The position numbers and the translations under genes were made by a program. 64,000 nt of DNA, taken from the NCBI RefSeq assembly GCF_001418135.1, contig NZ_LIPQ01000101.1, positions 1-64,000 on the forward strand, written 5' to 3'. Below the pieces are notes generated by a model that saw only the letters and a program-made list of their open reading frames with translations, ran no database searches and had not been told where the DNA came from. Source of the stretch: Streptomyces aureus (GTDB lineage: Bacteria; Actinomycetota; Actinomycetes; Streptomycetales; Streptomycetaceae). This document shows positions 21,446 to 53,093 of the stretch, piece by piece (position 1 is the stretch's first letter; every line of letters starts with the position of its first letter).

Positions 21446-21462
21446 TGTGAACTAAGTCCACA
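21446..21462. promoter_or_regulatory. shared operator, site 1 (between pPIWI-RE operon and kinase 1)
   Basis: TGTGAACTAAGTCCACA, with core GTGAAC-TAA-GTCCAC. It lies 84 bp from the operon's ATG at 21362 and 77 bp from the kinase GTG at 21538, so one protein could control both directions. It is one of six related sites in the window. Confidence 0.65.
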
Positions 21463-21537
21463 CACGGACCATCATTGGTCGACTTCACGCTACGCTGGCG
21501 TGCGCCAGGCAGTGCAGGCGTACGGAGGGGCGCAACG

Positions 21538-23025
21538 GTGGACATGGGCTCACAGGAGATCCGGACAGGACAGACCGTCGGCGGGCGCTTCAGGCTCGTC
21601 GCCGCGATCGGCAAGGGCGGCATGGCCCAGGTCTGGCGCGCCCATGACCTTCGGACCGGGCGGGATGCCGCGGTCAAGTTTCTCCGTCCGGACACCGAGG
21701 ACCTCCATCAGCTCGACACTCACGAGCGGCTGGCCGAACTCGACATGCTCCGCGCCCGGTTCCGCCGCGAGGCGAACCTCCTCGCCCAGTTGGCCCACCA
21801 GGGGATCCCCGAGCTGTACGACCGGGGCTCGCACGACGGCATGCCGTATCTCGCCATGCGCCTGGTCCCCGGGGTGACCCTTCACAAGTTCCTCGCGGAG
21901 AACGGCCCGCTCGCCCTGACCGTGGCCACCGCCGTCGCCGCGCAGGCAGCGGACGCCCTGGCCTGCGCGCACACACTGCCCGTCGTACACCGGGATCTGA
22001 AGCCCCACAACATCATGGTCTCCGACGAAGGGGTTGTCGTCCTCCTCGACTTCGGCATCGCGAAGCCGATCGGCGTCGGCGTCACTCACTACACGAGGCA
22101 CGGCTCGACGCTCGGAAGCCGCGGTTACCAGGCTCCCGAACAGATCTTGGAGAGAGAGCCCACCACGCGCACGGACATCTACTCCTTCGGCTGCGTCTGC
22201 TACGAACTGTTCGCAGGCCGCGCCCCCTTCATCCTCGGCGAGGAGAAGGGGCTGATCGAGCAGCATCTGCACAAGGATCCACTGCCGCCGAGCACTTACG
22301 CGGCCGGAATCCCCGATGCCCTCGACGATCTGCTGCTCCGCATGTTGGCCAAGGATCCCGAGCAGCGGCCTGCAATCGACGAAGTACTCAATGTCCTGAG
22401 CCCGTTGACACCTCGTCCTGGCTCACCTGAACCGCGCCCCCGGCTGCGCTACGACCCCACGGCCCCGTTTCGTCTTCCGAAGAACCAACCGGGCGATGGG
22501 CCATCGGCGACGACTCCTCAGCCCGTTCCGACCGTCTTCGAAGCAGACGACGAATGGCTGGACGTACGTGCCGTCGAGCGGCTCTGCGATGCGGCCGAGC
22601 AGGAGATTCAGGAGGGTGACCCGGACGAGGCCGTGCGACGCCTTGCACAGCTCGCCCCCCGGGCCCGGCAGGAGTGGGGCGCCCGGCGCCCCCTTGTCCG
22701 CCGGGTCTGGGACCTGGCCGCCGATGGGCTGCGGATCGCCGGCGACTGTGGCGGCGCGGCGCATCTCTACGAGTCCATCGCCGACGATCTGGCCCGCGGT
22801 GAGGGGCCGCGGGAGCGGGCCGATCAGACCGTTCTGCGACTCCGCGTCGCCGAATGCCGTCTCGCGTTCGGCGAGATCGAGGCGGCGATCAGGGTGGTCG
22901 AGGAGGCGGGGTACCTGGCGGCAGGGCTGCCTGCGCCGCTGGCCGCGCAAGTGGAGGAGGTGCGGCGCGAGGTCGACCTCGATCTCACCGAACGGCTCGC
23001 CGGGCCCGACATCCCTCAGGAGTAG
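21538..23025 (+). CDS. soluble Ser/Thr protein kinase with helical C-terminal tail (kinase 1)
   Basis: A 495-residue protein with a complete eukaryotic-like kinase domain: glycine loop GKGGMAQVW (about 25-33), AVKFL lysine, catalytic HRDLKPHN (about 151-158), DFGIAK (about 171) and YQAPEQ. After a proline-rich linker (about 300-340), residues 345-490 form TPR-like helices. There is no transmembrane helix and no PASTA domain, unlike housekeeping PknB-type kinases, so it acts in the cytosol. I chose GTG 21538 because GGAGGGG lies seven bases upstream; ATG two codons later is the alternative. It is divergent from the pPIWI-RE operon with an operator between. A defence role is inferred from context. 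Confidence 0.85.
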   Translation: MDMGSQEIRTGQTVGGRFRLVAAIGKGGMAQVWRAHDLRTGRDAAVKFLRPDTEDLHQLDTHERLAELDMLRARFRREANLLAQLAHQGIPELYDRGSHDGMPYLAMRLVPGVTLHKFLAENGPLALTVATAVAAQAADALACAHTLPVVHRDLKPHNIMVSDEGVVVLLDFGIAKPIGVGVTHYTRHGSTLGSRGYQAPEQILEREPTTRTDIYSFGCVCYELFAGRAPFILGEEKGLIEQHLHKDPLPPSTYAAGIPDALDDLLLRMLAKDPEQRPAIDEVLNVLSPLTPRPGSPEPRPRLRYDPTAPFRLPKNQPGDGPSATTPQPVPTVFEADDEWLDVRAVERLCDAAEQEIQEGDPDEAVRRLAQLAPRARQEWGARRPLVRRVWDLAADGLRIAGDCGGAAHLYESIADDLARGEGPRERADQTVLRLRVAECRLAFGEIEAAIRVVEEAGYLAAGLPAPLAAQVEEVRREVDLDLTERLAGPDIPQE

Positions 23026-23097
23026 CGTGCCGGCCGCACCCGGCCTGCGCCCGCCTACACCGACACTCCCTCGCTGCCGCGCGGGCCAGCAGCTTCG

Positions 23098-25149
23098 TCA
23101 CGCCTTACGCGACAACCGCCCCGCCGCCAGCTCATCGCTGAGGCCACGCACGAGACCGACACCGAGGGAACTCAGCCGCGTGACGAGCCTCTCGAACGAG
23201 ACCACCTGCTTGAACGCCTCGCTGTAGACCTGCTGTTCTTCCAACGAGACCTGGCGCACTTGCAACCTGCGCACATCGACTCGTGAGGAGCTCGACGCGT
23301 GTGTACCCGCCTGCCGGGCATTGGCAGGTGCCCGCAGCGACCCGGCGAGGAACCAGGCGTCGAGCTTTTCCGGGTGCACGCGCAGCGCGTGCAGCTGGGG
23401 CCCGAGCGCCATGGCGTCGCCTTGATGCACCCAAGCGGAGAACGCCCTGGCCACACCCGCGACCACGACATCCCCCCGCTCCACGATGACCGCTCCCTCC
23501 ACCTCGGCATCCGAATGGCTCAGCCAGCTGCCGGGCTCACCGTCGAGAAGCAGGTCGGGGATGGTGAGCAGCGCTACCCCGCCCTCGTCCGGCCGACTGT
23601 CGATCACCGTTCCGCTCGTCGGCTGCTGGCCTGCCCTGAGTGTGAGCGCGCCGGCCCGGGCGAGCTCGCCCACGGTTGTCGTGGGCTGGGCGCCTTCCTC
23701 AGCGTCCGACAGAGTCAGCGCTGCCAGGCGCCCGCCCGTGACACCGAGATCGGAGACCAGTCCGCTGAATTCGTTCCAGGATTCGCCGAGCGGAGGAGCG
23801 GAACCCAAGGCCCCCGAAGCCACATGACGGCCGGGTGTGAGGTCGACCTCGTCGTCGAGCAGATCGATGACGGGCACGCTGCTGACGTACTCCGGCCGGG
23901 CGGCTGCCCCGCTGTCCGTCGCGACGCTCCCCGCGGCGTCAACAGCGGCTCGGACGAAGGAGCCGAGTGCCTCCCAGTCCGGCCCGGAGTCCCTTGCCGA
24001 GGCTCGGGGGAAGCGCGCGGCGCCATCGGCGAGGAGCAGCTCACCGGGGCCCTGCGGTTCGGCTCCGGCCGTGGGCAGTCGCAGCACCCAGAGCTGCAGC
24101 GAGACGCTGTGTGGCGCCGCACACCCGGGCGGCAGCGCCACAACGGCCCGGAGCGCCCCCGTACGAAGAAGTGATCCTCGGATTCTGCGTCCCGCTCTGC
24201 GGTTCGCCACGGCCGGCGGGAGGAGCAGGACGGCAACCCCTCCAGGGCGCAACTGGGAGAGACAGTGCTGGACCCAGGCGAGTTCAGGCTCGGTGCGTGG
24301 CGGCATTCCGTGTGCCCATCGAGCATCCGTGGCCAGTTCTTCGTAGCCCCAGTCACGTTCGTTGAACGGAGGGTTGCAGAGCACCACGTCCGCACGAGTG
24401 CCCGCGAAGGGGTCGGCACGGAGGGAGTCGCCGCTTCTGACCTCGGGGTTCGGCGCTCCCTGTGCCGAGGGCGATGCGAGCGCGAGGCGAGCGTCCGCAA
24501 GGGCTGCGAGCACCGGGTCCTTGTCGCAGCCGAGCGGAACCACCCCGGGGTGTCCCGCGGCTGCGACCAGCAGATGTCCGGTGCCGCAGGCGGGGTCGAG
24601 GACCGTGACCAGGCCGTTGTCCGTCCCGTCACCCTGCCTGACCCGGAAGCGTAGAGCGAGGTCGGCCATGATCGCGGCCAGCGGTTCGGGAGTCGTGCTG
24701 ATCTGGCGCACATGTACGTCGAGCCAGCGCCGCAGCAGAAACTCGAAGGTCTCGCTAGGGCCCTCGCTCCGTCCGAGCTCCAGTGTCTCCGCAACCAGTT
24801 TCCGTGCCGCGGCCGGAAGTTCGGAGGGGTACTCGGCGCCCTTGCCCGTACCGCGTCCGCTCAGCAACCATCCGGCGGCCGCGATCGCAAGCCCCGTCTC
24901 GTCGCGGTTACCCAGTGCCTCGAACTGCGGCCACAGCCAGTCGCGACCTGCGGACTTCCTCAGCTTGTTGTTGTCCCGCAGCCATGCCTCGATCTCGGTC
25001 AAGGAGAACTGCGGGCTCCCGTCCGTGCCACCGATCCGCGTGGGAAACGACTCGTGCCGCCGCCGCCAGTTACTCACAGCAGCGCGCCCCACCCCCGCGA
25101 GTCGCGCGATTTCGGCCAAGGTCACTGGCACAGCGCGTGATGAGGTCAT
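23098..25149 (-). CDS. N6-adenine DNA methyltransferase with N-terminal HTH and HsdS-like C terminus
   Basis: A 683-residue protein. Residues 1-60 hold a helix-turn-helix (LAEIARLAGVGRAAVSNWRR). The centre is a type I-style adenine methylase: SAM motif DPACGTGHLL (about 184) and catalytic NPPF (259-262). The C-terminal ~200 residues (GELARAGALTLRAG, then GPQLHALRVHPEKLDAW and QRSLEEQQ-like helices) resemble one target-recognition half of an HsdS subunit, so specificity may be built in. No endonuclease domain is present, so it may mark host DNA against the pPIWI-RE nucleases. The HTH could let it regulate its own promoter. The ribosome binding site GGGAG lies five bases before the ATG. Confidence 0.82.
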   Translation of the reverse strand: MTSSRAVPVTLAEIARLAGVGRAAVSNWRRRHESFPTRIGGTDGSPQFSLTEIEAWLRDNNKLRKSAGRDWLWPQFEALGNRDETGLAIAAAGWLLSGRGTGKGAEYPSELPAAARKLVAETLELGRSEGPSETFEFLLRRWLDVHVRQISTTPEPLAAIMADLALRFRVRQGDGTDNGLVTVLDPACGTGHLLVAAAGHPGVVPLGCDKDPVLAALADARLALASPSAQGAPNPEVRSGDSLRADPFAGTRADVVLCNPPFNERDWGYEELATDARWAHGMPPRTEPELAWVQHCLSQLRPGGVAVLLLPPAVANRRAGRRIRGSLLRTGALRAVVALPPGCAAPHSVSLQLWVLRLPTAGAEPQGPGELLLADGAARFPRASARDSGPDWEALGSFVRAAVDAAGSVATDSGAAARPEYVSSVPVIDLLDDEVDLTPGRHVASGALGSAPPLGESWNEFSGLVSDLGVTGGRLAALTLSDAEEGAQPTTTVGELARAGALTLRAGQQPTSGTVIDSRPDEGGVALLTIPDLLLDGEPGSWLSHSDAEVEGAVIVERGDVVVAGVARAFSAWVHQGDAMALGPQLHALRVHPEKLDAWFLAGSLRAPANARQAGTHASSSSRVDVRRLQVRQVSLEEQQVYSEAFKQVVSFERLVTRLSSLGVGLVRGLSDELAAGRLSRKA

Positions 25150-25251
25150 CCGGTCTCCCAGCGTATATACGGTTCAAAGCCGGATCATCGGCACTCCGGA
25201 GCACGAAAACAGGCCACCACCCACGCACCCCACCGTCAGGCTACTACGCCC

Positions 25252-25266
25252 GTTGACTTTGTTCAC
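25252..25266. promoter_or_regulatory. shared operator, site 2 (between methyltransferase and kinase 2)
   Basis: GTTGAC-TTT-GTTCAC; the reverse strand reads GTGAAC-AAA-GTCAAC. It lies about 103 bp from the methyltransferase ATG (25149) and 86 bp from the kinase ATG (25352), the same divergent arrangement as site 1. Confidence 0.65.
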
Positions 25267-25351: not shown

Positions 25352-26293
25352 ATGCGCGCCATCGGCCATGGCACCGTAGTCGGCAATCGCTACCGGCTGG
25401 ACCGTCCACTCGGCCGCGGGAGCATGGGGCGCGTGTGGCAGGGACACGATCTTCACCTGGAGCGCCCTGTCGCCGTCAAGACGGTCACCACGGACGATCT
25501 CACGAGCGAGGAAGACCTCGACCGGTTCCGTAGACGCTTCGAGCGGGAGGCCAAGGCCGCTGCCGCACTCGACAGCGCAAACGTGGCGACCGTCTACGAC
25601 GCCGCCATGACGGGCGAGCTCCACTGGCTCGTGATGCAGCTCGTGGACGGTGCGACCCTCGACATGGTCCTGGATGAACGCGAGCGCCTCGACGTGGCCT
25701 CGGCGGCGGCCGTATGCGCGCAGATCTGCGCGGGTCTCTCGGTGGCACACGCCGCCGGCCTCATCCATCGGGACCTCAAGCCGGAGAATGTCATGATCCG
25801 CCGCGACGGCGTGGTGAAGGTCCTGGACTTCGGCCTGGTGAAGCTGGTGGTGGATGACGGCTCGCGACTGACAGCCACGGGCGAGCATCCGGGAAATCTC
25901 CTGTACGCCTCCCCCGAGCTGATCTCCGGGAACGGCGCACCACTCGACGCCCGCAGCGACCTCTACAGCGTCGGCTGCCTGCTGCACCATCTACTCTCGG
26001 GTATGCCGCCGTTCCCCTCCACGTCCCCTCTGGCCGTCGTCAGCGGGCACCTGTACGAGGCCCCGCCGGCTCTCGGCGAGTACGGAGTGGAGGTGCCGAA
26101 CGAGCTCCAGGCCTTGCTTTTCGCCCTGCTCGCGAAGGAGCGCACGGAACGGCCGGAATCGGCAGCCGACGTGTACGGCGCCCTGGGCCCCTGGCTGCCC
26201 ACCCCGGCCGCCGGGCCCGCCACACTGCGCAGTTTCGGCCCCGAGGATCCGCGGCGCCCCTTCGTCCTGCCCCAGGGACCGTATCCGGTGTGA
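25352..26293 (+). CDS. soluble Ser/Thr protein kinase (kinase 2)
   Basis: A 313-residue protein that is little more than a kinase domain: glycine loop GRGSMGRVW (about 21-29), AVKTV lysine, HRDLKPEN (about 139-146), DFGLVK (about 159) and YASPELIS. The activation-loop end (GEHPGNLLYASPE) is typical of Hanks-type actinobacterial kinases. There is no membrane helix or sensor domain. AAGGAAGGG lies close upstream of the ATG. It is divergent from the methyltransferase, across operator site 2, and is followed after 96 bp by kinase 3, possibly in the same transcript. The substrate is unknown. Confidence 0.87.
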   Translation: MRAIGHGTVVGNRYRLDRPLGRGSMGRVWQGHDLHLERPVAVKTVTTDDLTSEEDLDRFRRRFEREAKAAAALDSANVATVYDAAMTGELHWLVMQLVDGATLDMVLDERERLDVASAAAVCAQICAGLSVAHAAGLIHRDLKPENVMIRRDGVVKVLDFGLVKLVVDDGSRLTATGEHPGNLLYASPELISGNGAPLDARSDLYSVGCLLHHLLSGMPPFPSTSPLAVVSGHLYEAPPALGEYGVEVPNELQALLFALLAKERTERPESAADVYGALGPWLPTPAAGPATLRSFGPEDPRRPFVLPQGPYPV

Positions 26294-26389: not shown

Positions 26390-27877
26390 GTGAGACGAGT
26401 CATCCAGGAACGCTTCGAGCTGATCCGACGCATCGGCCGGGGAGGCATGGGCGAAGTCTGGGAGGCGAAGGACCTCCGGCTCAATCGGCTCGTCGCGGTG
26501 AAGCTGCTGCGTCTGGACGGCACCGGCGGAGGCAGTAGCCGACTGGAGCGGCGCTTCGAGCAGGAAGCGGACCTCCTTGCCCGCCTCGGGCACCCGGGTG
26601 TACCCGTGATCCACGACACGGGCAGGCACGAGAGTGACGCTCTGTACATCGCCATGGAACTCGTCCATGGCCAGACCCTGGCCGACCGCCTCAAGGAGCA
26701 CGGCCCGTTCCCGGTGACGCTGGCCGCGAGCGTCGCGGTGCAGACGGTGGAGGTGCTCGCCGAAGCACATCAGATCCCTGTCATCCATCGTGACCTGAAG
26801 CCGTCGAATCTGATGCTGACAGACAAGGGGACGCTGAAGGTTCTCGATTTCGGCATCGCCGCCGCCCGGCAGGACGATCCCGACGCGCCACGGCTCACCG
26901 GGACGAACGATCTCCTCGGTACGCCGGGGTTCATCTCGCCCGAACAGGGACTGGGCAAGCCGGCAACCGCACGGAGTGACCTGTACGCCCTCGGCTGCGT
27001 GCTGTACGAGATCCTGGCGGGGAAGCCGCCTTTCGAGTTGCAGGGTGGCGTGCCGCTCGCCCTGCTCCTCAAACACATGCACGACAAGCCCGCTCCCGTC
27101 ACCGAGCACCGAGCGGACCTGCCGTCCGAGTTCGCCGACCTCGTCATGCGACTGCTCGCCAAGGACCCCGCGGATCGCCCCTCGGTACGGGAAGTACGGG
27201 AAGTGGCTCGCACCTGGCTGGAGCCACAGACGATCCCCGGCCCGCGCACGCCGTCGGCAGACCGCCCCGCCCCCGCGAGCTCGCAGACGCGGTCCGCGTC
27301 GGGTGCGGAAGGCGCACAGTCGGCGGCGTCCCTCTCCGAAGAGGTCCGCGCGCTGGCGGCGCGGGGGGAGCATGTCGCCGCCGCGGCCCTCCTGGAGAAA
27401 CACCTCTGCGGTACGCGCCGACGGCTCGACGACACCGAGGTGCTGCCCTTGCGTCTCACCTACGCCGCGCTGCTGATCGAGTCCGAGGAGTTCACGACCG
27501 CGTACGAGGTGTTCTTCAGCCTCGGGGGCGCCCTGCGTCAGCACCGTCCGGCAACAGACCGGGATGTCCTTGCGTGTCGCGCGGGCGCAGCCCGATGCCT
27601 CTCGGAACTCGGCCGCACTCCTGAGGCGCGGCACGAGTACGAGGCACTGCTCCCCGTCCAGCAACATGTCTTCGGGCCGATGGACCGGGCCGTCTTCGAC
27701 ACCCGGTACGAGATCGCCGCGCTCACCGCCCGCGGGGGCCAGATCGAGAGCGCTCAGGCCCAGCTGACCGGCTTGGACGCCGACCAGCAGCGCGTCCTGC
27801 CACGCACGGATCCCCGGCACGCCAGGACCGCGGCGCTCCTCGGACGACTCGATCGCTTCGAGCGGCGCTCCACGTAG
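26390..27877 (+). CDS. soluble Ser/Thr protein kinase with TPR-like tail (kinase 3)
   Basis: A 495-residue protein. Kinase motifs are GRGGMGEVW (about 17-25), AVKLL lysine, HRDLKPSN (about 133-140), DFGIAA (about 153) and FISPEQG. After a proline/serine-rich linker (about 275-310), the tail (about 315-490) is helical and TPR-like (AARGEHVAAAALLEKHL, FTTAYEVFFSLGGALRQ). The length and layout match kinase 1, so the two are probably paralogues with different substrates. The start is GTG 26390 after a GGGGGAG ribosome binding site. There is no transmembrane segment. Operator site 3 and drmD follow downstream. Confidence 0.85.
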   Translation: MRRVIQERFELIRRIGRGGMGEVWEAKDLRLNRLVAVKLLRLDGTGGGSSRLERRFEQEADLLARLGHPGVPVIHDTGRHESDALYIAMELVHGQTLADRLKEHGPFPVTLAASVAVQTVEVLAEAHQIPVIHRDLKPSNLMLTDKGTLKVLDFGIAAARQDDPDAPRLTGTNDLLGTPGFISPEQGLGKPATARSDLYALGCVLYEILAGKPPFELQGGVPLALLLKHMHDKPAPVTEHRADLPSEFADLVMRLLAKDPADRPSVREVREVARTWLEPQTIPGPRTPSADRPAPASSQTRSASGAEGAQSAASLSEEVRALAARGEHVAAAALLEKHLCGTRRRLDDTEVLPLRLTYAALLIESEEFTTAYEVFFSLGGALRQHRPATDRDVLACRAGAARCLSELGRTPEARHEYEALLPVQQHVFGPMDRAVFDTRYEIAALTARGGQIESAQAQLTGLDADQQRVLPRTDPRHARTAALLGRLDRFERRST

Positions 27878-27898: not shown

Positions 27899-27913
27899 GT
27901 GAACTATGTTCAC
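27899..27913. promoter_or_regulatory. shared operator, site 3 (upstream of drmD)
   Basis: GTGAAC-TAT-GTTCAC, a perfect 6+3+6 palindrome and the best of the six sites. It lies 116 bp upstream of the drmD ATG. A possible promoter overlaps it: TTCACA (27909-27914) followed by TAACAT near 27929. Confidence 0.7.
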
Positions 27914-28029
27914 AACAGAATCCCTCGGTTAACATACCGCCCACGGCGGCTTCCCGTTCCGTGTCCTGAATTGCGTAAAGTCGATGCCGTATGCGAGGGC
28001 GCGGCCCCGTCACAGAGAGAAGGCACAGC

Positions 28030-31000
28030 ATGACGCAGGCGGCCCGGCGGGATCGCGGCACGGACGCATCGGAGCAGCTGCCCCAGGAGGGCGAGCTGGT
28101 CGAGGTGCGCGGCCAGAGCTGGGTCGTCGCCGGTGTCGATGCGGCGCCCGCCGAAGGTGGGCGGGCCGCCACTCTGGTCCACCTCCAGTCGGTGGCCGAC
28201 GGCCGCTTCGGGGACACGCTCTCCGTCATATGGGAGGTCGAGCCAGGGCGCAGGGTCCTGGACCGGGGCTCGCTGCCCGATGCCTCCGCCTGCCAGTTCG
28301 ACCCGCCCTCGCGTCTCGCCGCCTTCCTCGACGCCGTCCGCTGGTCGGCGGTCGCCTCCGCCGACGTCAAGACCCTCCAAGCGCCCTTCCGCTCGGGCGT
28401 CGCTGTCGAGCCGTACCAGCTCGAACCCGTCTCCCGTGCTGTCGGCGCACCGCGTGTCAACCTTCTCCTCGCCGACGATGTCGGTCTCGGCAAGACCATC
28501 GAGGCCGGTCTCGTCGTGCAGGAGCTGCTGCTGCGCGGCAGGGCGCACCGGGTCATGGTGGTCTGCCCGGCGGGCCTCACCCTGAAGTGGCGGGACGAGC
28601 TGCAGGACAAGTTCGGTCTCACCTTCACCATCGTCGACTCCGAGCACTGCGCACGGCTGCGCCGGACCCACGGCACGGCGGCCAATCCGTTCCGGGTCCA
28701 CCCGCTCACCATCATCTCGCTCCCCTGGCTGCGCGGTCCGAAGGCGCAGCGGCTACTGGACGAAGTGGTCCCGGCCCGGGAGGAGAACCAGGAGGACGGG
28801 TCCCAGCAGCGCCGCTTCTTCGACCTTCTCGTCCTGGACGAGGCTCACCATGTCGCACCGGCCGCACCCAAACAGGTGTATGCGGTCGACTCCCAGCAGA
28901 CCAAGCTGATCCGGCGCCTGGTGCCGCACTTCGAGCACCGGCTGTTCCTCTCCGCGACCCCGCACAATGGCTACCCGGAGTCGTACACCGCGCTGCTCGA
29001 ACTCATCGACAACCAGAAGTTCGCCCGGGGTGTCGAACCCGACAAGCAGTCCCGGGACGAGACGGTCGTACGCCGTCTGAAGGTCAACGTCACCAACCCC
29101 GACGGTACACAGCGCTTCCGTATCCGCCAGACCCACGAGCTCCCCGTTGAATACACCGAGTTGGAACGGGAGATCCACGGCCTGCTCGGCAGCTTCGCCG
29201 ACCTGCGCAAGCGTCGTATGGCCCCGAAGGCGCGCGGTGGCCGCCGTGCCGCCGACCTCGTCACGCTGCTGCTGAAGAAGCGCCTCTTCTCCTCCCCCGC
29301 CGCCTTCCTGCACACCGTCAAGGTGTACCTCTCCCACCTGGACGACACACACGGCCGCACGCGTTCCGCCGCCGCCGAAGTCCCCGAGTGGCTGGAAGAG
29401 TTCGCCGACCTCGCCGCCGACCTGGACGACCTCGGCCTGGCCGACGCCGAGGACGCGGCCCTCACCCGCTCCACCAGCCTGACGCCGCAGGAGGACGGGG
29501 ACGAGCTGACGCTGCTGCGGGAGATGGAGCGCTGGGCTCTCATGCACGAGGCCGCCGCCGACTCCAAGGCCGACGCGCTGATCAATGAGCTCAAGGCGAT
29601 CTGCCGCCCCGACCAGCACTGGCTCAACGAGCGGGTCGTGGTCTTCACCGAGTACCGCGACACCCAGAAGTGGCTGTTCAGCCTGCTCCAGCAGCATCAG
29701 CTCACCGACGGCGGGCGGGTCGCCGTGCTGCACGGCGGGCTGAACGCCGAGGAGCGCGAGGAGATCCGGCTCGGCTTCCAGGCCCATCCGGCCACCGAGG
29801 AAGGCAAGGTCCGCATCCTGCTGGCGACCGACGCGGCCAGCGAGGGCATCGACCTCCAGAACCACTGCCACCGGCTGTTCAACTACGACATCCCGTTCAA
29901 CCCCAACAAGCTGGAGCAGCGCATCGGCCGGATCGACCGCTGGGGCCAGCGCACGGATCCGGAGATCACCCATTTCATCGGCGCCGGCTGGGAGAAGGCC
30001 AAGGCCGGCTCCTACGAGGCCGACCTCGAGTTCCTCTCCCGCGTCGCCCGCAAGGTCGCCAAGATGGAACAGGACCTCGGCTCGGTCAACGCCGTCATCG
30101 CCGAGGCCGTACAACGGCGCATGACCGGCGACCAGATGCCCGTGGACATCGAGAACGCGAAGCCGAGGCAGATCGCCGGCCGCAAGACCGGCGGCGACAT
30201 CGCCGCCGAGCAGAACGTGACCGCGCAGGCCAAGCGTCTCGCCGACCAGTACCAGGAGACGGTCGACACCCTCGGCCTGACCCCGGCCAACATCAAGCGC
30301 GTCGTCGACACCGCGCTCGCGCTCGACCACCAGCAGCCCCTCGCTCCCCACCACAGCGTGGACTTCGAGGGCGGCCTGTACGACGTGCCGCCGCTCTCCG
30401 GCACGTGGGAGCGCGCCACCCGGGGCCTGGCCCACAAGCTGCGCCCTGCCGAGCAGCGCCCCGTCACCTTCGACCCGCAGATCGCCGCGCTCGGTCGTGA
30501 CGACATCGTGCTCGCCCACCTGAAGCACCCACTGGTCGCGCTCTCCACCCGGCTGCTCACCGCCGCGGTCTGGAACGCGGACAGCGTCGGCCTGCACCGC
30601 GTCGCGGCCGTTGTCAGCGACGACCCCGCTCTTCAGACGACGCTCGTCTCGGCCTACGCGCGGTACGTCCTCGTCGGCGCGGACGGCACCCGCCTGCACG
30701 AGGAGATCCTCTACGCAGGCGGCTGGTTCGGCGACACGGGTCGCTTCCGCCGCTGGGACTCCGTCGGCGCCCAAGGTGCCGCCCTGGGTCGCGCCCTCAC
30801 CGACGGCACCGAGGCCGCGCCCGCCCTGCGCCAGGAGCTCACCGGTGCCTGGTCCAAACTGAAGGACCCGCTGTACGACTCTCTGGCCGCCCGCGCCCGC
30901 GAGCGGCGCGCCTCGCTGGAGAACGCCCTCGACAGCCGCCGCGCCGAGGAGGAGGCCCGCATCCAGGCCACCCTCGACCGCTTCGAGGCCACCCTGCGCG

Positions 31001-39265: not shown

Positions 39266-39748
39266 ATGAAGTCAGAAATCGCCGCCCCCGCCACCCACTT
39301 CAGAGTCCAACTCAGCTCCACCCGGCGCGGCGCGCGTCTCGCCCGCCTCCTCGTCGAGCGGCAGCTGGACGACTGGGGACTCGCCCCCACGGACCCCACC
39401 TCCGCCGCGCTCGTCGCCATCACCGCGGAACTCTCCGCCAACGCGATCACCCACGGCCGGAGTCCCGGCAGGGACTTCGCCGTGCGGCTACTCCGCTCCA
39501 CCGATCACCTCCGTGTCGAAGTCAGCGACACCCGCCCCGACAGGCTTCCGGCGATGCCCCCTGCGCGACCACCCGAGCATGCCGTCACCGGTCGCGGCCT
39601 CCTCCTCGTCGACGCCTTCGCCGACCAGTGGGGCTGTGAAGCGCGTGCCCCCTACATCAAGACAGTCTGGGCCGAGGTGTCCCGACGGGTGGGGTGTGAC
39701 TTGGACGAGACGGCTCACCCTCGCCATCAACAGCATGTCATCCTCTAA
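39266..39748 (+). CDS. HATPase_c (anti-sigma-like) ATP-binding protein
   Basis: A 160-residue GHKL-fold protein of the RsbW/SpoIIAB-like kind. The N-box is ELSANAITHG, the G1 box VEVSDTRPD, and the G2-like GRGLLLVDAFADQWG completes the ATP site. It is divergent from the XRE/DUF397 pair, the standard gene trio. Such ATPases act as anti-sigma kinases or as partners of the neighbouring HTH protein; which applies here cannot be told. It ends 49 bp before the 526-residue gene. Confidence 0.85.
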   Translation: MKSEIAAPATHFRVQLSSTRRGARLARLLVERQLDDWGLAPTDPTSAALVAITAELSANAITHGRSPGRDFAVRLLRSTDHLRVEVSDTRPDRLPAMPPARPPEHAVTGRGLLLVDAFADQWGCEARAPYIKTVWAEVSRRVGCDLDETAHPRHQQHVIL

Positions 39749-39761: not shown

Positions 39762-39791
39762 TTGTGTGAACTGAGTCAACACACCTAGAGT
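39762..39791 (+). promoter_or_regulatory. promoter with embedded shared operator, site 4
   Basis: A -35 TTGTGT (39762-39767) and -10 TAGAGT (39786-39791) are 18 bp apart. The operator GTGAAC-TGA-GTCAAC (39766-39780) fills the spacer, so a bound protein would block RNA polymerase. The ATG at 39798 falls where transcription should start, and no Shine-Dalgarno is present, so the mRNA is probably leaderless. Confidence 0.65.
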
Positions 39792-41422: not shown

Positions 41423-41437
41423 GTGAACACAGTCAAC
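41423..41437. promoter_or_regulatory. shared operator, site 5 (upstream of drmA)
   Basis: GTGAAC-ACA-GTCAAC, 89 bp before the drmA ATG. The preceding TT gives a TTGTGA that could serve as a -35, with a weak CATCCT 17 bp downstream. It has the same right half-site as site 4. Confidence 0.65.
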
Positions 41438-44500: not shown

Positions 44501-45375
44501 AGTATGCGGTGGCACGCAAGGAGAAGCGCGAACCCAGGGTCAAGCTGACGCCTTTGCAGCGGCAGGCCGTCGATGTCGTGCTCGCCACCTCGATGCTCCA
44601 GGTCGGCGTGGACGTCTCGCGTTTCGGCCTGATGCTCGTCGTCGGTCAGCCGAAGAACACCGCCGAGTACATCCAGGCGTCCTCGCGCGTCGGCCGTGAC
44701 GCCCGCCGCCCCGGCCTGGTCGTCACCCTGTACAACTGGTCCCGCCCCCGGGACCTGGCGCACTTCGAGGACTTCGGTCACTACCACGCCACGTTCTACC
44801 GGCAGGTCGAAGCCCTTTCCGTCACGCCTTTCACCCGTCGTGCCCTCGACCGGGGTACCGCGCCGACGTACATCGCGGCACTGCGCCAGGCCACCCACGA
44901 GCACTCGCGCAACACCGACGCCCAAAGCATCGACCTGGACGGGCCGATCGCCGCCGAAGTCGAGGCGCGGCTGCTTGACCGGGCCGACCGGGTGGGCGGA
45001 GCGACCGCCCAGCGCTATCTCGCCGAGCGGATCAGGGCGTTGAAGGACTCCTGGGCCGAGCAGCGTGAGCGCGGCGGTGTGCTCGGCTACCGGAGGGAGA
45101 AGAAGAAGACCAGCCTCGTCACCGGACTGCTCCACCGGGCCGACGGCTCGCGCTGGGACGAGCTCACCGTGCCCATGTCGATGCGCGAGACCGAGAACGA
45201 GCTCAACCTGCTGCTGGCCGGCAGCGGGAACTTCGTGGACCAGGCCACGCACAGTGGACCCGACTGGAGGTTCACACCAGCCGGGGACGAGGACGCAGGC
45301 GACACGGCGGCACCCGTCGACGCCGACGAATACGGGGACGCCGCCTCCGGCGCGGCAGGAAAGGGACGACGATGA
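41527..45375 (+). CDS. drmA: DISARM core helicase DrmA
   Basis: A 1282-residue superfamily 2 helicase-like protein. Walker A is PTGGGKT (about 500-506), the Walker B-like QDELHLISG lies at about 765, a Cys motif CPWCGEGL (about 630) precedes it, and motif VI is SSRVGRDARR (about 1053). DrmA and DrmB form the DISARM core that loads on foreign DNA ends, with DrmA tracking on DNA. The N-terminal ~450 residues are the family-specific arm. It starts a tight drmA-drmB-drmC operon (ATGA overlap into drmB), separate from drmD-drmMI. Confidence 0.93.
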   Translation: MPSQPAAATPGVPHPLDEVPQTFLPGDSYDVRDGLVKYIRDDLLGPWDGVTEELPHRSAGPRDRYLVGMLGPRPESSDTATQIARNAAHLADVEPGSDDGKEEAGLEDRLTPQASGRIWASSMGLSFVVPASVGALTVAATWGRYSQTSGLTDDGRPAQVWGREPVKHESDVHVARTGDQSRVLEGDESSGILLDVQVRERATGEGGEDLRVVEVALINRLREGDTDRRDTQWLFQAALTVTAFPDERAAVFLPIDDPLDPTTADGSEDAEERRLRLLYRDSLRHAVGRNVAVQVHVRKGERRAHRLETTWLPAYDVPATSAPTAAEQPLLDGLELGMDELAALAVPERRKELTEVLAPLADGYSRWLEEQRQKAQGLPEDLRIAAETAIDQAEEVCHRIAFGIDALSADKDALEAFRFANRAMALQRRNTAIAGLRTGQEGVTYQQAYDEVWGRGKEAASWRPFQLAFVLLNLASLTQPGHPHRGTGREALVDLLFFPTGGGKTEAYLGLAAYTFALRRLQGVVGSGSEARDGSDGVGVLMRYTLRLLTAQQFQRAAALVSACEVLRREEFTRDARWGITPFRIGLWVGNSVSPNWFSEAQEQIAGAKESSSDKHARVIQVLSCPWCGEGLTAHSNMEYDADRRRVLLYCPRGEGESRCPFSRLGSRNVEGFSEGIPVITVDEEIYRLAPAMVIATVDKLAQLPWNGYAGLLFGRVTDWCARHGYRHADLDERTDCRSRHTKKGKLEAVAARPVTRLRPPDLIIQDELHLISGALGTTVGLFEAAVDQLCSWSFTDKTGRRHEVGPKIVASTATTKRAADQVRGVFARQVAVFPPQVLDVGDTFFSRQVELSRSDPGRRYLGVCAHGTRLKAAEIRVAEIMLLGAQQLFDEHGAAADPYMTLVGYFNATRELAGMRRYMDDDIATRVRVNGGRKGHRTISDRIVTKSGMLNIQELTSRISSADIGATLKRLETAFDPERDTSLRRRALFMEYAVARKEKREPRVKLTPLQRQAVDVVLATSMLQVGVDVSRFGLMLVVGQPKNTAEYIQASSRVGRDARRPGLVVTLYNWSRPRDLAHFEDFGHYHATFYRQVEALSVTPFTRRALDRGTAPTYIAALRQATHEHSRNTDAQSIDLDGPIAAEVEARLLDRADRVGGATAQRYLAERIRALKDSWAEQRERGGVLGYRREKKKTSLVTGLLHRADGSRWDELTVPMSMRETENELNLLLAGSGNFVDQATHSGPDWRFTPAGDEDAGDTAAPVDADEYGDAASGAAGKGRR

Positions 45376-47270
45376 GCACCAACTACTTCCGCCGCGTCGG
45401 CGCAGCACGCCCCAGCCACCTGATGTACACGGCGGGGGTCGGCTCACTGATCGACCTGCCGAACTTCTCCGTCCTGGTCAAGGGCCTCGAATCCTGGAGC
45501 CACGGCGGCCTGACGGACTACGTGATCGACGAGCCCAGGCTCCGTACTGCCGTCAACCGCTCGCTCCAGCTGTACGGTGCCGCTCGGGTCGAGGAGCTGC
45601 GCTCGGCCCCGTGGATGGAGGGTGCGGACAGCTCACCCAAGGACCGGGCAGCGCAGGGTGTGGGTGTACCGGTGACGCCCTTCCCGCAGTGGCTCCGGTG
45701 CACGGCCTGCAACATCCTGGCGCCCATCGACGCGGAGGCCTTCACCTTCGTCAACAACAATCCGCGCACTCCGCACGAGGCGAAGTTCGTCCACGACTGC
45801 AAGCCCGGCAAGCCGCTCGCGGTCGCGGCCCGCTTCACGCTCGTCTGCACCGACGGACACCTGGACGAGTTCCCGTACGCGCCCTTCGTCCATCACGGCA
45901 ACGCCTGCGTGAAGATGCCCAGGCCTCTGCTCCGCATGAAGGACCACGGCGGCAACCAGGCGGCCAACGTGACCCTGGAGTGCGTCGCCTGCGGTGAGAA
46001 GCGCAATATCCGCGACGCGATGGGAGACCGGGGCCGGCGCAACCTGCCCCAGTGCCGCGGTCGTCACCCGCATCTCGGTTCGTACCAGAGCGACGGGTGC
46101 GACAAGGAGCCGACCCTCATGGTGGCGGGCGCGTCCAACCAGTGGTTCCCCATGACACTCAGCGCGCTTGCCCTCCCGCCGAGCAGGAACGGCAACCTCA
46201 GCGAACTCGTCGAGGAGCGCTGGGTCGAAGTGCAAGGGGTCACCTCACGCGTGGTCTTCGACGCCTTCGCCGCCACCCCCTCGTTCGCGTATCTCAGGGG
46301 GTACGACGCCGAAGCCTTCATCGCCGCCGTCCAGGCCCACAGGGACCGGTTGGAGGGGAACACACCCCAGGCGGAAGCAGCTGCCCCGCCGGATCTGCTC
46401 AGCCCTGAATGGACCGTCCTGTCCTCGTCCCCCATGCCCGATGCCACCGATGACTTCGCCCTCGAAGCGATGCCGGTGCCCGATGCCCTGACCGACCTCT
46501 TCGCGGACGTACGGCAGGTACAGCGGCTGAGGGAGGCTCGTGCGCTGATCGGGTTCACTAGGCTCGACGCCCCGGACCCGGAGGCGCCGGAGATCGCCAC
46601 ACGAGTACGCCTGGACCGCACGTCCCAGAACTGGGTCCCCGCGAGCGAGGTACGGGGCGAGGGGATCTTCCTGCGGGTGCGGGAGGACCTGATGGCCGAG
46701 TGGGAGGAGCGCATGAGCAAGTCGCCCGCGATGCAGGCGCACCGCGAGGCGTTCGCCCGCTTCCGCACCAACCGCAAGTCGGACCGGTTGCAGGGCTCGT
46801 TTGACCCCATGCGGGGCTGGCCCGGGGAGCGGTACATCGCCCTGCACTCGCTCTCGCATCTCCTGATCCGGACCATCGCCCTGGAATGCGGCTACAGCTC
46901 GGCCAGCCTGGCCGAGCGCATCTACGCCGGGGACGAGGAACACCCGACGACCGGAATCCTCATCTACACGGCCGTACCGGACTCCGAAGGCACCCTGGGA
47001 GGTCTCGTCTCCCTCGCCGAGGAACCGCACTTCGAGCGGATCATGCGCCGGGCTCTGAGGGACGCGTCCCGCTGTTCCTCCGATCCGCTGTGCGCCGAGA
47101 GGCTGCCGCGCGATCCGGCCGACTATCTCCACGGAGCCGCCTGCCACGTCTGCCTGTTCGTCTCCGAGACGACCTGTGAACGCGGCAATCGCTTCCTCGA
47201 CCGCCGCTTCATCGTCCCGCTGGGCGACGAGACGGACCAGGTCCTGACGCCGGTGGGTCTGAGGCCGTGA
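45372..47270 (+). CDS. drmB: DISARM core protein DrmB (DUF1998)
   Basis: A 632-residue DUF1998 protein. It has CxxC pairs in the N-terminal half (RCTACNI, LECVACGEK), the DUF1998 helix LHSLSHLLIRTIALECGYSS (about 490-510), and C-terminal cysteines in ACHVCLFVSETTCERGNR (about 590-608). DrmB partners DrmA; the cysteines probably bind zinc. Its ATG overlaps the drmA stop and its stop overlaps the drmC GTG, so translation is coupled through the operon. Confidence 0.92.
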   Translation: MSTNYFRRVGAARPSHLMYTAGVGSLIDLPNFSVLVKGLESWSHGGLTDYVIDEPRLRTAVNRSLQLYGAARVEELRSAPWMEGADSSPKDRAAQGVGVPVTPFPQWLRCTACNILAPIDAEAFTFVNNNPRTPHEAKFVHDCKPGKPLAVAARFTLVCTDGHLDEFPYAPFVHHGNACVKMPRPLLRMKDHGGNQAANVTLECVACGEKRNIRDAMGDRGRRNLPQCRGRHPHLGSYQSDGCDKEPTLMVAGASNQWFPMTLSALALPPSRNGNLSELVEERWVEVQGVTSRVVFDAFAATPSFAYLRGYDAEAFIAAVQAHRDRLEGNTPQAEAAAPPDLLSPEWTVLSSSPMPDATDDFALEAMPVPDALTDLFADVRQVQRLREARALIGFTRLDAPDPEAPEIATRVRLDRTSQNWVPASEVRGEGIFLRVREDLMAEWEERMSKSPAMQAHREAFARFRTNRKSDRLQGSFDPMRGWPGERYIALHSLSHLLIRTIALECGYSSASLAERIYAGDEEHPTTGILIYTAVPDSEGTLGGLVSLAEEPHFERIMRRALRDASRCSSDPLCAERLPRDPADYLHGAACHVCLFVSETTCERGNRFLDRRFIVPLGDETDQVLTPVGLRP

Positions 47271-48031
47271 GTCGCGAGGAGTTCGAGGCCGCGGCGCACG
47301 CGGTCGCGGCGGTCCTCGGATCCTCGCGCACCAAGGACCTGGCGGGAGTACTGGCCCGCGGGCGCGGAATGGAGCATGCGCTCCTCGCGGTCCAGGATCC
47401 GCGTGCGAGCGAGGCGATACGGGAGGTGTACGCGTCGGTACGGCGGGAGCGCATCCCCTATCCGGAGGCCGCGGCCTATCTGCGGGGCTTCGTCGCCGGG
47501 CTGGCGGGGCAGCCTGACGAGGCTCACGTCAGTACGGTCTGGAGCGGGCCCGCCACACCGGGCGTGCCGGTTCGGCCGACCGCACGGGTCCTCGCCGAGG
47601 TCGTCGGCCGGGCCGAGCGGGAACTGCTGGCCATGACGTACTCGGCCCGTCCCTATGAACCGCTCGCCGTCGCGCTGCGGGCGGCCATCGCGCGGGGCGT
47701 CGACGTCCATGTCGTGGTCGAGACCAAGGCGGGAGCCGCGGGCCTGCTCGGCGGGCCGGAGCCGGCCGAGGCGTTCGCGGCCGTGCCCGGCGTACGGTTG
47801 TGGCACTGGGACCCCAAGCGGCGCGACCACCGCCAGGCTCGGCAGCACGCCAAGCTGGCGGTGGCCGACCGGCGCGTGCTGCTCCTGGGCAGTGCGAACC
47901 TGACGGAGTCAGGTGTCCGCAGGAACCTGGAAGCGGGGGTGTTGGTCACGGGTGGCACCGCCCCTCAGAGGGCTGCCGAGCACATACGGGAACTTCAGCG
48001 GCGGGGAGTGCTGAGACCGCTGTATCCGTAG
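47267..48031 (+). CDS. drmC: DISARM phospholipase-D-type nuclease DrmC
   Basis: A 254-residue protein with one HKD motif, HAKLAVADRRVLLLGSANLT (H and K at about 194 and 196), as in phospholipase-D-superfamily nucleases. A single motif implies dimeric action. In DISARM, drmC is the third conserved core gene but was found less important for protection than drmA and drmB. The start is GTG 47267, overlapping the drmB stop (GTGA). It converges on the DUF262 gene with a 36-bp gap containing a small CCCCGAGGGG hairpin. Confidence 0.9.
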   Translation: MSREEFEAAAHAVAAVLGSSRTKDLAGVLARGRGMEHALLAVQDPRASEAIREVYASVRRERIPYPEAAAYLRGFVAGLAGQPDEAHVSTVWSGPATPGVPVRPTARVLAEVVGRAERELLAMTYSARPYEPLAVALRAAIARGVDVHVVVETKAGAAGLLGGPEPAEAFAAVPGVRLWHWDPKRRDHRQARQHAKLAVADRRVLLLGSANLTESGVRRNLEAGVLVTGGTAPQRAAEHIRELQRRGVLRPLYP

Positions 48032-50650: not shown

Positions 50651-50752
50651 GAACGCCCCCTCACACCAAGTTGCCCACGCCGACCCGCCATTCTTCCCCA
50701 TCCAGGTACGGTGATCGGAAGAATCGACGGACCGCACGACTGGGGGCGACGC

Positions 50753-52966
50753 ATGGCGACGCTGGGAATCCACAAGGACTTCCTCAGGGAATTCGCCAAG
50801 CTGGAGAAACCGGTCCAAAAGCGCGTCGAGGAAGTCTTCGACAAGTTCCAGGAGCACCGGCATGCAGGGCTCCACCTGGAGAAGCTGGAGAAGGCGCGGG
50901 ACCCTCGTATCCGCACCATCCGCATCAACCAGTTCATGCGGGGAGTGGTCCTGGCCCCGGAGTCGGGAGACAGCTTTCTGCTCCTCAAGGTCATGCCTCA
51001 CGACGATGCCATCGCCTGGGCCGTCAAGCACCGGGCGACCGTCAACTCCGCCACGCGGGGCATCGAGTTGCGCAACGATGTCGCACTGGAGCGGGCGACC
51101 GCTGGCGTCCGGGCGATCGCCCCGAAGGATTCCAAGAGGCTGTTCGCGCATGTCGCCGACAAGGAGATGATCCGACTCGGGATCGACCCCGACCTCCTCC
51201 CCCTCGTTCGCCATCTCAGCGACGAGGCTCATCTCGACGCCCTGCACAAGATCCTGCCGGAACAGCAGTACGACGTACTGGCAGGCCTCGCTGCCGGAAT
51301 GGAACCCGAGGACGTCTGGCGCGAGGTCGTGCTCGTACAGCTGGAACAGCCCACAGCCCGTACGTCTCAGCACACCGCTACGGCAGAGAACCGTGATCAA
51401 TCGGACTCTCCGGCCGGCCAGGACGAGCTCTCTGCCGCCATGGCCCGCTCGCAGGGCAGGATCGCCCTCGTCTCCGGACCTGACGAGCTGATGGACATCC
51501 TGTCGCGCCCCTTCGACGCGTGGCGGGTGTTCCTGCACCCCAGCCAGCGGAAGGTGGCATACCGGCCGTCGTTCAAGGGACCGGCCCGGATCGCCGGCGG
51601 CCCTGGCACCGGCAAGACCGTGGTCGCGCTGCATCGTGCCCTGCATCTCGCAAGGCAGCTTCCGGCAGGCTCGCCGGACGAGTCGATCCTGCTCACCACG
51701 TACACCCGGGATCTTGCGGCCGATCTCCGGAGCAGCCTCGAACTGCTGATTCCGGAGGTGGAGTTGCGGGCAAAGATCCGCGTCGTCAACGTGGACGCGC
51801 TCGCCCATCAACTCGTACGGGAGGATCGCGGTGCCCCGCTCTCGCTCGTCACAGGGCAGAAGGAGATCACGGCACGCTGGTCCCGCATCGCACACCGACT
51901 CGGTATCGACTTCGCCGACGCCTTCCTCGACCAGGAGTGGCGGCACGTCATCCTCGCCCAGGACCTGCGTTGTCCCGAGGCATACCTCAAGGCATCCCGA
52001 ACCGGACGGGGCACTCCCCTCGGCCCGCTGAAGCGAGCCCAGGTATGGCGGGCCGTCGAGGCGTTCACGCAGGAGCTGCGACAGGCAGGCGAATGGACGT
52101 TCCTCCAGGTGTGCGCCGAGGCCGCTCGGCTCCTGGCGGAACGGCGTGCGGAGCACGCGTTCCGCCACGTGGTGATCGACGAAGCCCAGGATCTCCATCC
52201 CGCCCAGTGGCGATTGCTGAGGGCCTTGGTCCCGCCCGGCCCGGACGACCTGTTCATCGCCGGCGACGCCCATCAGCGGATCTACGGCAACAAGGTGTCG
52301 CTGCGAAGCCTCGATATTTCGGTGACCGGCCGGTCCACTCGGCTGCGTATCAACTACCGGACCACGAAGGAGATCCTCGTCTGGTCCACCAACTTGCTGA
52401 CCGGCGAGCGGGTGGACGACATGGACGGAGGCGACGATTCATTCGACGGCTATCGGTCGGCATTCCACGGGGCGCCTCCGCGGACCAGTGGCGCCGGCTC
52501 CAAGCCCGAGGAGATCGCCGACCTGGTGGCACAGATCGAGGAATGGACCCAGGCCGATGTCTCGCCGCACGAGATCGGCGTCGCCGTGCGGTTCGTTCAA
52601 CTGGGCAAGGACATCGCTCAGGGCCTGGAGCGGGCCGGCCTCCCGGCGACCGTGCTCGGCAGCACGTCGTCGGGACCCGGTGACGGCGTCCGAATCGGCA
52701 CCATGCACCGGATGAAGGGCCTCGAATTCCGATGCATGGCCGTGGTCGGCGTGAACGACGGTGTCGTACCGATGCGCAGCGCGGTGACAGCGGAGGAGGT
52801 GGATGCTCAGCAGCATCGCGAGGATCTGCTGAGCGAATTGAGCCTGCTCTTCGTCGCCTGCACCCGGGCACGTGAAGCGCTCCGGGTTTCCTGGCACGGG
52901 CATCCCAGTCCGTTCCTCCATGGGGTTCTGGAACGAATGCCGAATGGCTCCGGATGTAGATCTTGA
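50753..52966 (+). CDS. ParE-like/UvrD-like helicase fusion
   Basis: A 737-residue protein. The first ~100 residues resemble a RelE/ParE toxin fold (MATLGIHKDFLREFAKLEKP, then RTIRINQFMRGVVLAPE). The rest is a superfamily 1 helicase: Walker A GGPGTGKT (about 282), DEAQD (about 475), INYRTT (about 532) and GTMHRMKGLEF (about 649). Such fusions are common in actinobacteria; the toxin part may serve as a DNA or protein contact instead of a toxin, since no antitoxin gene is beside it. It is divergent from the DUF262 gene across 102 bp, so the two may act together against modified DNA. GGGGG lies upstream of ATG 50753. Confidence 0.83.
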   Translation: MATLGIHKDFLREFAKLEKPVQKRVEEVFDKFQEHRHAGLHLEKLEKARDPRIRTIRINQFMRGVVLAPESGDSFLLLKVMPHDDAIAWAVKHRATVNSATRGIELRNDVALERATAGVRAIAPKDSKRLFAHVADKEMIRLGIDPDLLPLVRHLSDEAHLDALHKILPEQQYDVLAGLAAGMEPEDVWREVVLVQLEQPTARTSQHTATAENRDQSDSPAGQDELSAAMARSQGRIALVSGPDELMDILSRPFDAWRVFLHPSQRKVAYRPSFKGPARIAGGPGTGKTVVALHRALHLARQLPAGSPDESILLTTYTRDLAADLRSSLELLIPEVELRAKIRVVNVDALAHQLVREDRGAPLSLVTGQKEITARWSRIAHRLGIDFADAFLDQEWRHVILAQDLRCPEAYLKASRTGRGTPLGPLKRAQVWRAVEAFTQELRQAGEWTFLQVCAEAARLLAERRAEHAFRHVVIDEAQDLHPAQWRLLRALVPPGPDDLFIAGDAHQRIYGNKVSLRSLDISVTGRSTRLRINYRTTKEILVWSTNLLTGERVDDMDGGDDSFDGYRSAFHGAPPRTSGAGSKPEEIADLVAQIEEWTQADVSPHEIGVAVRFVQLGKDIAQGLERAGLPATVLGSTSSGPGDGVRIGTMHRMKGLEFRCMAVVGVNDGVVPMRSAVTAEEVDAQQHREDLLSELSLLFVACTRAREALRVSWHGHPSPFLHGVLERMPNGSGCRS

Positions 52967-53078
52967 CGCCCGAATCGATCAACCTGCCGCTCGGCTCCCG
53001 AGGCCCATATCTGTACACCGAGGAGCTGAAGCGCGTTTCTAGCAGCTCGAGCCCCTGCAACCCCAACCCCGCCAAACG

Positions 53079-53093
53079 GTGAACTGAGTTCCG
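53079..53093. promoter_or_regulatory. operator-like site 6, orphan
   Basis: GTGAAC-TGA-GTTCCG. The left half is identical to sites 3-5 and the right half differs from GTTCAC at two positions. No gene starts nearby on either strand, so it may be left over from a lost gene or be a chance match. Confidence 0.4.

What the first reader, a model, noticed from the sequence alone, without database searches (positions are those of the whole stretch)
21446..53093. One palindromic operator motif ties the pPIWI-RE locus, kinases, methyltransferase and DISARM together
Six sites share GTGAAC-N3-GTTCAC or close variants: 21447, 25252, 27899 (perfect), 39766, 41423 and 53079. Five lie 17-117 bp upstream of gene starts: pPIWI-RE operon with kinase 1, methyltransferase with kinase 2, drmD, the 526-residue gene and drmA. 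The odd spacing (N3) is not that of LexA. This implies one regulator co-controls systems usually described separately and that the unknown gene and kinases are working parts.
Basis: partly seen in the sequence, partly recalled or inferred. Interest (0 to 1): 0.85.

Follow-up and report, generated by a model that had tools for sequence, protein, structure and literature searches.

The report
Defence-island operator read by HTH-methyltransferase
A short palindromic DNA switch sits in front of several separate anti-phage systems in this Streptomyces island and in dozens of related islands, always together with a DNA-binding methyltransferase-like protein that probably reads it, which suggests that one regulator controls a whole multi-system immune island.

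Summary
GTGAAC-N3-GTTCAC-type sites at 21447, 25252, 27899, 39766 and 41423 lie in the promoters of pPIWI-RE/kinase 1, methyltransferase/kinase 2, drmD, the 526-aa gene and drmA. A refined consensus has six matches in the 7.9-Mb genome, five of them here. The sixth site (53079) is degenerate and unsupported.

A matrix trained only on the window's five sites finds the site in other islands: 40/40 methyltransferase homologs, 15/15 pPIWI-RE promoters, 14/15 drmD and 5/5 drmA linked to that methyltransferase. DISARM loci without it score 1/18 (drmD) and 0/8 (drmA). Genes inside operons score 0/54.

The likely reader is not the XRE protein but the HTH-methyltransferase (23098-25149): its HTH helix is invariant, and a paralog class with one helix substitution (AGVG to AGVT) has a correspondingly changed operator. 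The sites overlap inferred -35/-10 regions, so repression is likely. Binding, repression and the inducing signal are inferred, not shown. The closest precedent in mechanism is M.SsoII/M.Ecl18kI. I found no report of one such protein controlling several unrelated defence systems.

The parts
21447..21461 (.). operator GTGAACTAAGTCCAC between the pPIWI-RE operon (leftward) and kinase K1 (rightward)
   Evidence: 15/15 homologous promoters carry a site
25252..25266 (.). operator GTTGACTTTGTTCAC (reverse GTGAACAAAGTCAAC) between HTH-MTase (leftward) and kinase K2 (rightward)
   Evidence: 40/40 MTase homologs carry a site
25238..25243 (-). inferred -10 element TAGCCT of the MTase promoter, 8 nt past the operator
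   Evidence: TANNNT at gap 8 in 19 of 31 homologous promoters
27899..27913 (.). perfect operator GTGAACTATGTTCAC upstream of drmD
   Evidence: 14/15 MTase-linked drmD homologs, 1/18 unlinked
27930..27935 (+). inferred -10 element TAACAT of drmD, 16 nt past the operator
   Evidence: TANNNT at gap 15-17 in 15 of 15 homologous promoters
39766..39780 (.). operator GTGAACTGAGTCAAC, 17 bp before the 526-aa gene
   Evidence: not testable in relatives for lack of homologs
41423..41437 (.). operator GTGAACACAGTCAAC upstream of drmA
   Evidence: site upstream of drmA also in G225, G065, G136, G009, G341
53079..53093 (.). degenerate match GTGAACTGAGTTCCG; rejected as part of the regulon
   Evidence: 2 mismatches; right half broken, no convincing gene start next to it, not seen in relatives
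23098..25149 (-). HTH-N6-methyltransferase with type I S-like C-terminus; proposed reader of the operator
   Evidence: PF02384 5.5e-25, HTH_17 3.3e-4; operator in its own promoter in all homologs of its class; helix-operator covariation
24970..25128 (-). HTH domain, residues about 8-60, invariant AGVGRAAVSNWRRR
   Evidence: alignment; AlphaFold pLDDT about 91-94
21544..23025 (+). Ser/Thr kinase K1 (PD-T4-6/Mad6-like)
   Evidence: start set by the conserved promoter
25352..26293 (+). Ser/Thr kinase K2
   Evidence: Pfam Pkinase 3e-43
26390..27877 (+). Ser/Thr kinase K3, downstream of K2; no operator of its own in DISARM islands
11604..21407 (-). pPIWI-RE operon: PprPDDEXK 19605-21407, PprRE 18425-19825, PprDinG 14728-18444, pPIWI 11604-14858
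   Evidence: PADLOC
27991..35573 (+). DISARM drmD (27991-31248) and drmMI (31245-35573)
   Evidence: PADLOC
35695..38037 (+). 780-aa gene, no library match; homologs elsewhere carry the operator, this copy does not
38030..39748 (.).
   Evidence: no operator between XRE and HATPase
39798..41378 (+). 526-aa gene of unknown family
   Evidence: no Pfam, PADLOC or NCBIfam match; one partial homolog in 393 genomes
41527..48031 (+). DISARM drmA (41527-45375), drmB (45372-47270), drmC (47267-48031)
   Evidence: PADLOC

Best explanation
The palindrome is the operator of a dedicated regulon that spans the whole defence island. The most likely reader is the HTH-methyltransferase encoded in the middle of the island (23098-25149): two copies of its N-terminal HTH would bind the two half-sites, the conserved GTGAAC half and the target-specific second half. 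It would repress its own gene, the divergent kinases K2-K3, the pPIWI-RE operon with kinase K1, drmD-drmMI, the 526-aa gene and drmA-drmB-drmC by covering the -35 region. Shown by sequence: the sites, their island restriction, their conservation in the same promoters, their dependence on a linked HTH-MTase, and the coupled change of helix and operator. Inferred: physical binding, repression rather than activation, and release of repression when the protein is drawn away or altered (by unmethylated incoming DNA, SAM state or kinase phosphorylation).
For: Island restriction: 5 of 6 consensus sites of the genome are here. In relatives, 23 of 27 distinct sites lie in the island, and 7 genomes have none. 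Conservation: a matrix built from the window's five sites scores 40/40 MTase, 15/15 pPIWI-RE, 14/15 drmD and 5/5 drmA upstream regions at 11 or more; 0/54 for the operon-internal drmMI, PprRE, PprDinG and pPIWI; 8 of 921 random 360-bp windows reach 11.4. Dependence on the MTase: drmD 1/18 and drmA 0/8 in loci without it. Beyond the family: G646 (same class, another family) has sites at both the MTase and the K1/pPIWI-RE promoters at 31-56% protein identity. Covariation: AGVG helix, 54 of 62 have GTGAAC-N3; AGVT helix, 0 of 31 have it and 26 of 31 have GTNNNC-N3-GTCAAC at 57-63 bp. The own genome's stand-alone paralog also has an operator, GTGAACCGAGTCAAC. Promoter geometry: fixed but different gaps to -10-like elements, MTase 8, drmD 15-17, pPIWI-RE 9-13 nt. 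Precedent: M.Ecl18kI/M.SsoII, whose N-terminal HTH region binds a 15-bp inverted repeat as two molecules and shuts its own promoter (PMC3695355).
Against: No binding, expression or methylation data. The AGVG/AGVT covariation may be one evolutionary event. MTase-less DISARM loci are also more distant (39-66% drmD identity), so absence of the operator could partly reflect lineage. L144 has a weak drmD site (14) with kinase K3 but no MTase seen within its 20 kb. K1's site lies further upstream (gap 24-29 nt to its -10), so activation there is possible. The pPIWI-RE search for MTase-less Streptomyces loci failed three times; only one distant plasmid example without the site was seen.
Confidence: 0.78

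Rival explanations
1. The XRE-DUF5753 protein (38242-39126), with DUF397 and the HATPase, is the reader, and the MTase is only a target.
For: An XRE regulator lies inside the island; homologs 58-66% identical lie in G225, G065, G136, G009 and G341, which carry the operator.
Against: Most loci with the operator show no XRE within the DNA read. DISARM loci with XRE homologs but no MTase lack the operator. XRE and HATPase promoters lack it (XRE 1 of 15, HATPase 0 of 13), although autoregulation would be expected. The relative WhiJ9 binds direct repeats CGNNCTCAAC, not a palindrome (PMC10294661). The operator changes with the MTase helix. Caveat: the XREs of MTase-less loci are only 31-40% identical, so they might read another site.
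Confidence: 0.08
2. The motif is a promoter element (a -35 box of one sigma factor) rather than a regulator's operator.
For: The half-sites resemble -35 boxes (TTGACT, TTCACA) and overlap the -35 position at drmD and MTase.
Against: Gaps to the -10-like element differ by promoter (8, 9-13, 15-17, 24-29 nt). Both half-sites and the N3 spacing are kept. The sites are confined to islands instead of spread over the genome.
Confidence: 0.05
3. The palindrome is a methylation site of the MTase (or DrmMI), used for epigenetic marking rather than for HTH binding.
For: The MTase has an S-like target-recognition part and a coiled coil; the site holds adenines on both strands.
Against: The sites are promoter-placed and nearly absent elsewhere. 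Family members with altered motif IV (CHPP, DLPA, SYPP) still have an operator. Operator class follows the HTH.
Confidence: 0.07

Closest known systems
M.SsoII / M.Ecl18kI (C5-methyltransferases with an N-terminal HTH regulating their own R-M system)
   Same: A DNA methyltransferase with an N-terminal HTH; a 15-bp inverted repeat in the divergent promoter next to its gene; autorepression by covering the promoter (PMC3695355).
   Different: Here an N6-MTase-like protein of the type I M plus S architecture with another HTH (HTH_17); the operator stands in front of several unrelated defence operons, and part of the family has a degenerate catalytic motif.
RptR
   Same: A repressor of a defence island with a conserved palindromic binding site, found in diverse bacteria (PMC12255303).
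   Different: A small stand-alone repressor binding TAGCTA repeats of one island promoter; here the presumed reader is an MTase-like protein with about one site per operon across several systems.
BrxR (WYL regulators of BREX)
   Same: A dedicated regulator of a defence system that acts on its promoter (PMC9122589; details from own knowledge).
   Different: WYL-domain protein, one BREX system; not the protein family found here.
MADS (Mad1 HTH, Mad2 MTase, Mad6 kinase)
   Same: HTH, N6-MTase and Ser/Thr kinase in one defence locus; weak Mad1 and Mad2 and clearer Mad6 similarity.
   Different: The MTase scores 20.9 bits against the MAD2 cut-off of 720 and the kinase 144.9 against 460 for MAD6. 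The core here is pPIWI-RE plus DISARM.
pPIWI-RE and class 1 DISARM systems
   Same: All PADLOC core genes are present.
   Different: The 2013 pPIWI-RE description notes no associated methylase and suggests autoregulation only by HTHs fused to the REase (PMC3702460); here a linked HTH-MTase and kinase are conserved.

Membership tests
HTH-methyltransferase autoregulators (M.SsoII/Ecl18kI type) | DNA-methyltransferase with an N-terminal HTH | tested here: met
   N6_Mtase domain and HTH_17 in one protein; confident HTH in the model
HTH-methyltransferase autoregulators (M.SsoII/Ecl18kI type) | Inverted-repeat operator in its own promoter | tested here: met
   40 of 40 homologs
HTH-methyltransferase autoregulators (M.SsoII/Ecl18kI type) | Member of the C5 SsoII-like family | tested here: not met
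   N6/type I HsdM-like by Pfam and by fold; works like it, is not one of it
HTH-methyltransferase autoregulators (M.SsoII/Ecl18kI type) | Protein binds the operator and changes transcription | not testable with these tools
   needs EMSA and expression data
Class 1 DISARM | drmD, drmMI, drmA, drmB, drmC | tested here: met
   PADLOC hits
pPIWI-RE system | pPIWI-RE, DinG helicase and REase genes | tested here: met
   PADLOC hits
MADS | MAD2 and MAD6 above curated cut-offs | tested here: not met
   20.9 vs 720 and 144.9 vs 460 bits
LexA/SOS box | CGAAC-N4-GTTCG spacing | tested here: not met
   All five sites are N3 with GT..AC halves; LexA consensus from own knowledge
WhiJ/XRE-DUF397 regulon | Operator at the XRE promoter and wherever XRE is present | tested here: not met

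The most novel reading that the evidence does not exclude
A family of methyltransferase-derived proteins, some with altered catalytic motifs, acts as a sensor-repressor of multi-system immunity islands. The MTase/S part senses incoming or unmodified DNA, SAM or phosphorylation by the island kinases, and this releases the HTH from its operators, switching on pPIWI-RE, DISARM, type IV-like GmrSD and helicase-nuclease systems together. The operator is a portable tag by which new defence genes join the regulon.
Probability: 0.35. Interest if true: 0.92.

Novelty: new variant of a known kind. Interest (0 to 1): 0.8.

Why it matters
How defence islands are regulated is largely open, and most known regulators control one system. 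Here one operator links pPIWI-RE, DISARM, three kinases and, in related islands, GmrSD, helicase-nuclease, Druantia-like and UvrD-helicase genes, so these may be parts of one regulated immune programme. The operator also works as a search key: genes of unknown function that carry it become candidate defence genes. The proposed reader is a named protein, so the idea can be tested directly by gel shift and deletion. Some family members have altered catalytic motifs but an unchanged HTH, which suggests a restriction-type enzyme turned into a transcription factor.

Tried and rejected
Site 53079 as a regulon member: broken half-site, no convincing gene start, opposite-strand helicase-like remnant. 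XRE as reader. Sigma promoter element. MADS membership. A match in the promoter of a housekeeping lyase-like gene elsewhere in the genome (C209:21795) looks like a chance match: its TAAACT fits a -10 box of a short-leader promoter; its conservation was not tested. Most other loose matches in the genome lie in open frames and have GC-rich cores. Searches that failed on the server: drmA in the genus and three pPIWI-RE searches, so the MTase-less pPIWI-RE control is thin. Structure of the 526-aa protein without homologs: pLDDT 40, not used. Comparing MTases with and without the HTH as a natural control was abandoned, because homologs whose hits began after residue 69 turned out to have the HTH and the operator too.
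Full report
OBSERVATION. Allowing three mismatches, the window has 36 matches against 22 expected, so the loose pattern proves little. A consensus refined on homologous loci of other genomes, GTRAACWNWGWHNAY, occurs six times, five of them here, with control 0. That consensus includes the window's own sites, so it is partly circular; the cleaner test is the next paragraph. The sixth site, 53079, has a broken half (GTTCCG), precedes no convincing start codon and is dropped.

CONSERVATION. I trained a matrix on the five window sites only and scored 360-bp upstream regions in other genomes. Regions at 11 or more: HTH-methyltransferase 40/40, PprPDDEXK/K1 divergent promoter 15/15, drmD 14/15 (the exception, L088, is a drmD copy with an internal stop), drmA 5/5. 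Genes inside the operons (drmMI 15, PprRE 12, PprDinG 16, pPIWI 11 regions) give none. Of 921 random 360-bp windows, 8 reach 11.4 and 1 reaches 14; AT-rich windows do so more often (20 of 297 at 11.4), so single weak hits mean little, but most real sites score 14-24. The sites survive at 45-65% protein identity and at class level: G646, from another family, has sites at both the MTase and the K1/pPIWI-RE promoter with proteins 31-56% identical.

ISLAND RESTRICTION. In 15 further genomes, GTGAACWNWGTYNAY has 27 distinct matches; 23 lie in the island around the HTH-MTase (G225 four, G065 six, G136 four, G009 three, G306 three, G341 two, G241 one). Seven genomes have none, including G110, G015, G122 and G227, which carry DISARM without the island MTase. 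In G065, G136, G009 and G341 the same site precedes drmA, and further sites precede homologs of the window's 780-aa gene, GmrSD genes and a 1933-1967-aa gene in the place where homologous loci encode a helicase-nuclease with an MTES_1575 domain. Elsewhere sites precede a Druantia-E-like helicase gene (L050) and a UvrD/GajB-like helicase gene (L054).

WHO READS IT. MTase loci were fetched with the MTase as query, so its presence there proves nothing. The reverse test was made with drmD: in 18 drmD loci without the MTase within 20 kb, one has a site (L144, weak, next to a K3 homolog), and drmA there scores 0/8. Several of these loci carry the XRE-DUF397-HATPase trio, without the operator. XRE promoters score 1/15 and HATPase promoters 0/13 in all loci. 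The studied relative WhiJ9 binds direct repeats (PMC10294661). The caveat is that the MTase-less loci are also more distant relatives.

COVARIATION. All 62 MTases of the AGVG helix class keep AGVGRAAVSNWRRR, and 54 have GTGAAC-N3-GNNNAY upstream; the others have variants such as GTAAAC. In a paralog class the helix reads AGVTRAAVSNWRRR; none of 31 has that operator, and 26 have GTNNNC-N3-GTCAAC at 57-63 bp from the start. Spacing and outer GT...AC are kept and the conserved half changes from GTGAAC to GTTGAC. This may be one evolutionary event. The own genome also holds a stand-alone paralog with the operator GTGAACCGAGTCAAC.

THE PROTEIN. N-terminal HTH (pLDDT about 91-94), an HsdM-like MTase and an S-like region with a coiled coil; nearest solved folds are type I or PacII modification subunits. 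Motif IV is NPPF here, but CHPP, SYPP or DLPA in some relatives, while the HTH is invariant. This suggests that DNA binding, not methylation, is the shared function of the family. Whether the window's enzyme methylates DNA is not known.

MECHANISM. Conserved -10-like elements lie 8 nt (MTase), 9-13 nt (pPIWI-RE), 15-17 nt (drmD) and 24-29 nt (K1) past the operator. The site therefore covers the -35 or spacer region at MTase, pPIWI-RE and drmD, as a repressor would, and is not a fixed -35 element of one sigma factor. M.Ecl18kI does this at its own promoter with a 15-bp inverted repeat bound by two molecules (PMC3695355). The inducing event is unknown; titration by incoming DNA, SAM state and phosphorylation by the island kinases are possibilities, all inferred.

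PLACE AMONG KNOWN SYSTEMS. Defence-island repressors such as RptR (PMC12255303) and BrxR exist, and HTH-MTase autoregulators exist. I found no report of an N6-MTase-like regulator with one operator across several unrelated defence systems, within the open-access papers searched. I rate it a new variant of a known kind.

Noticed in passing
L008:582 (own genome, contig C15) and L096-L109: Many Streptomyces carry a stand-alone HTH-MTase paralog with CHPP in motif IV and a near-invariant operator GTGAACCGAGTCAAC next to a divergent gene; probably a core transcription factor.
   Followed up: partly
L169-L198: A second paralog class (AGVT helix, hits in 74 of 393 Streptomyces) with its own operator GTNNNC-N3-GTCAAC about 58 bp upstream.
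   Followed up: partly
L199:12804-19279, L202:13063, L203:6451-7412, L207:2851-4002: Further operator copies before 780-aa-gene homologs, GmrSD genes and very large helicase-nuclease genes in DISARM islands; islands of 40-50 kb with up to six strict sites.
   Followed up: partly
window 52273-52966, + strand: Apparent remnant of a UvrD-like helicase reading opposite to GmrSD (motif-like GPDDLFIAGDAHQRIYG); judged by eye from the sequence only.
   Followed up: no
window 48068-52273: GmrSD protein fused to about 540 extra N-terminal residues that are a separate gene in relatives, often just upstream of drmA.
   Followed up: partly
window 38030-39748: XRE-DUF5753, DUF397 and HATPase trio (WhiJ/BldB/AbaA-like layout) within DISARM, also in many MTase-less DISARM loci; a second, separate regulatory layer.
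   Followed up: partly
window 53777-58429: 1550-aa WD40 beta-propeller protein with weak Mad8 similarity (E 0.0047) at the island edge.
   Followed up: no
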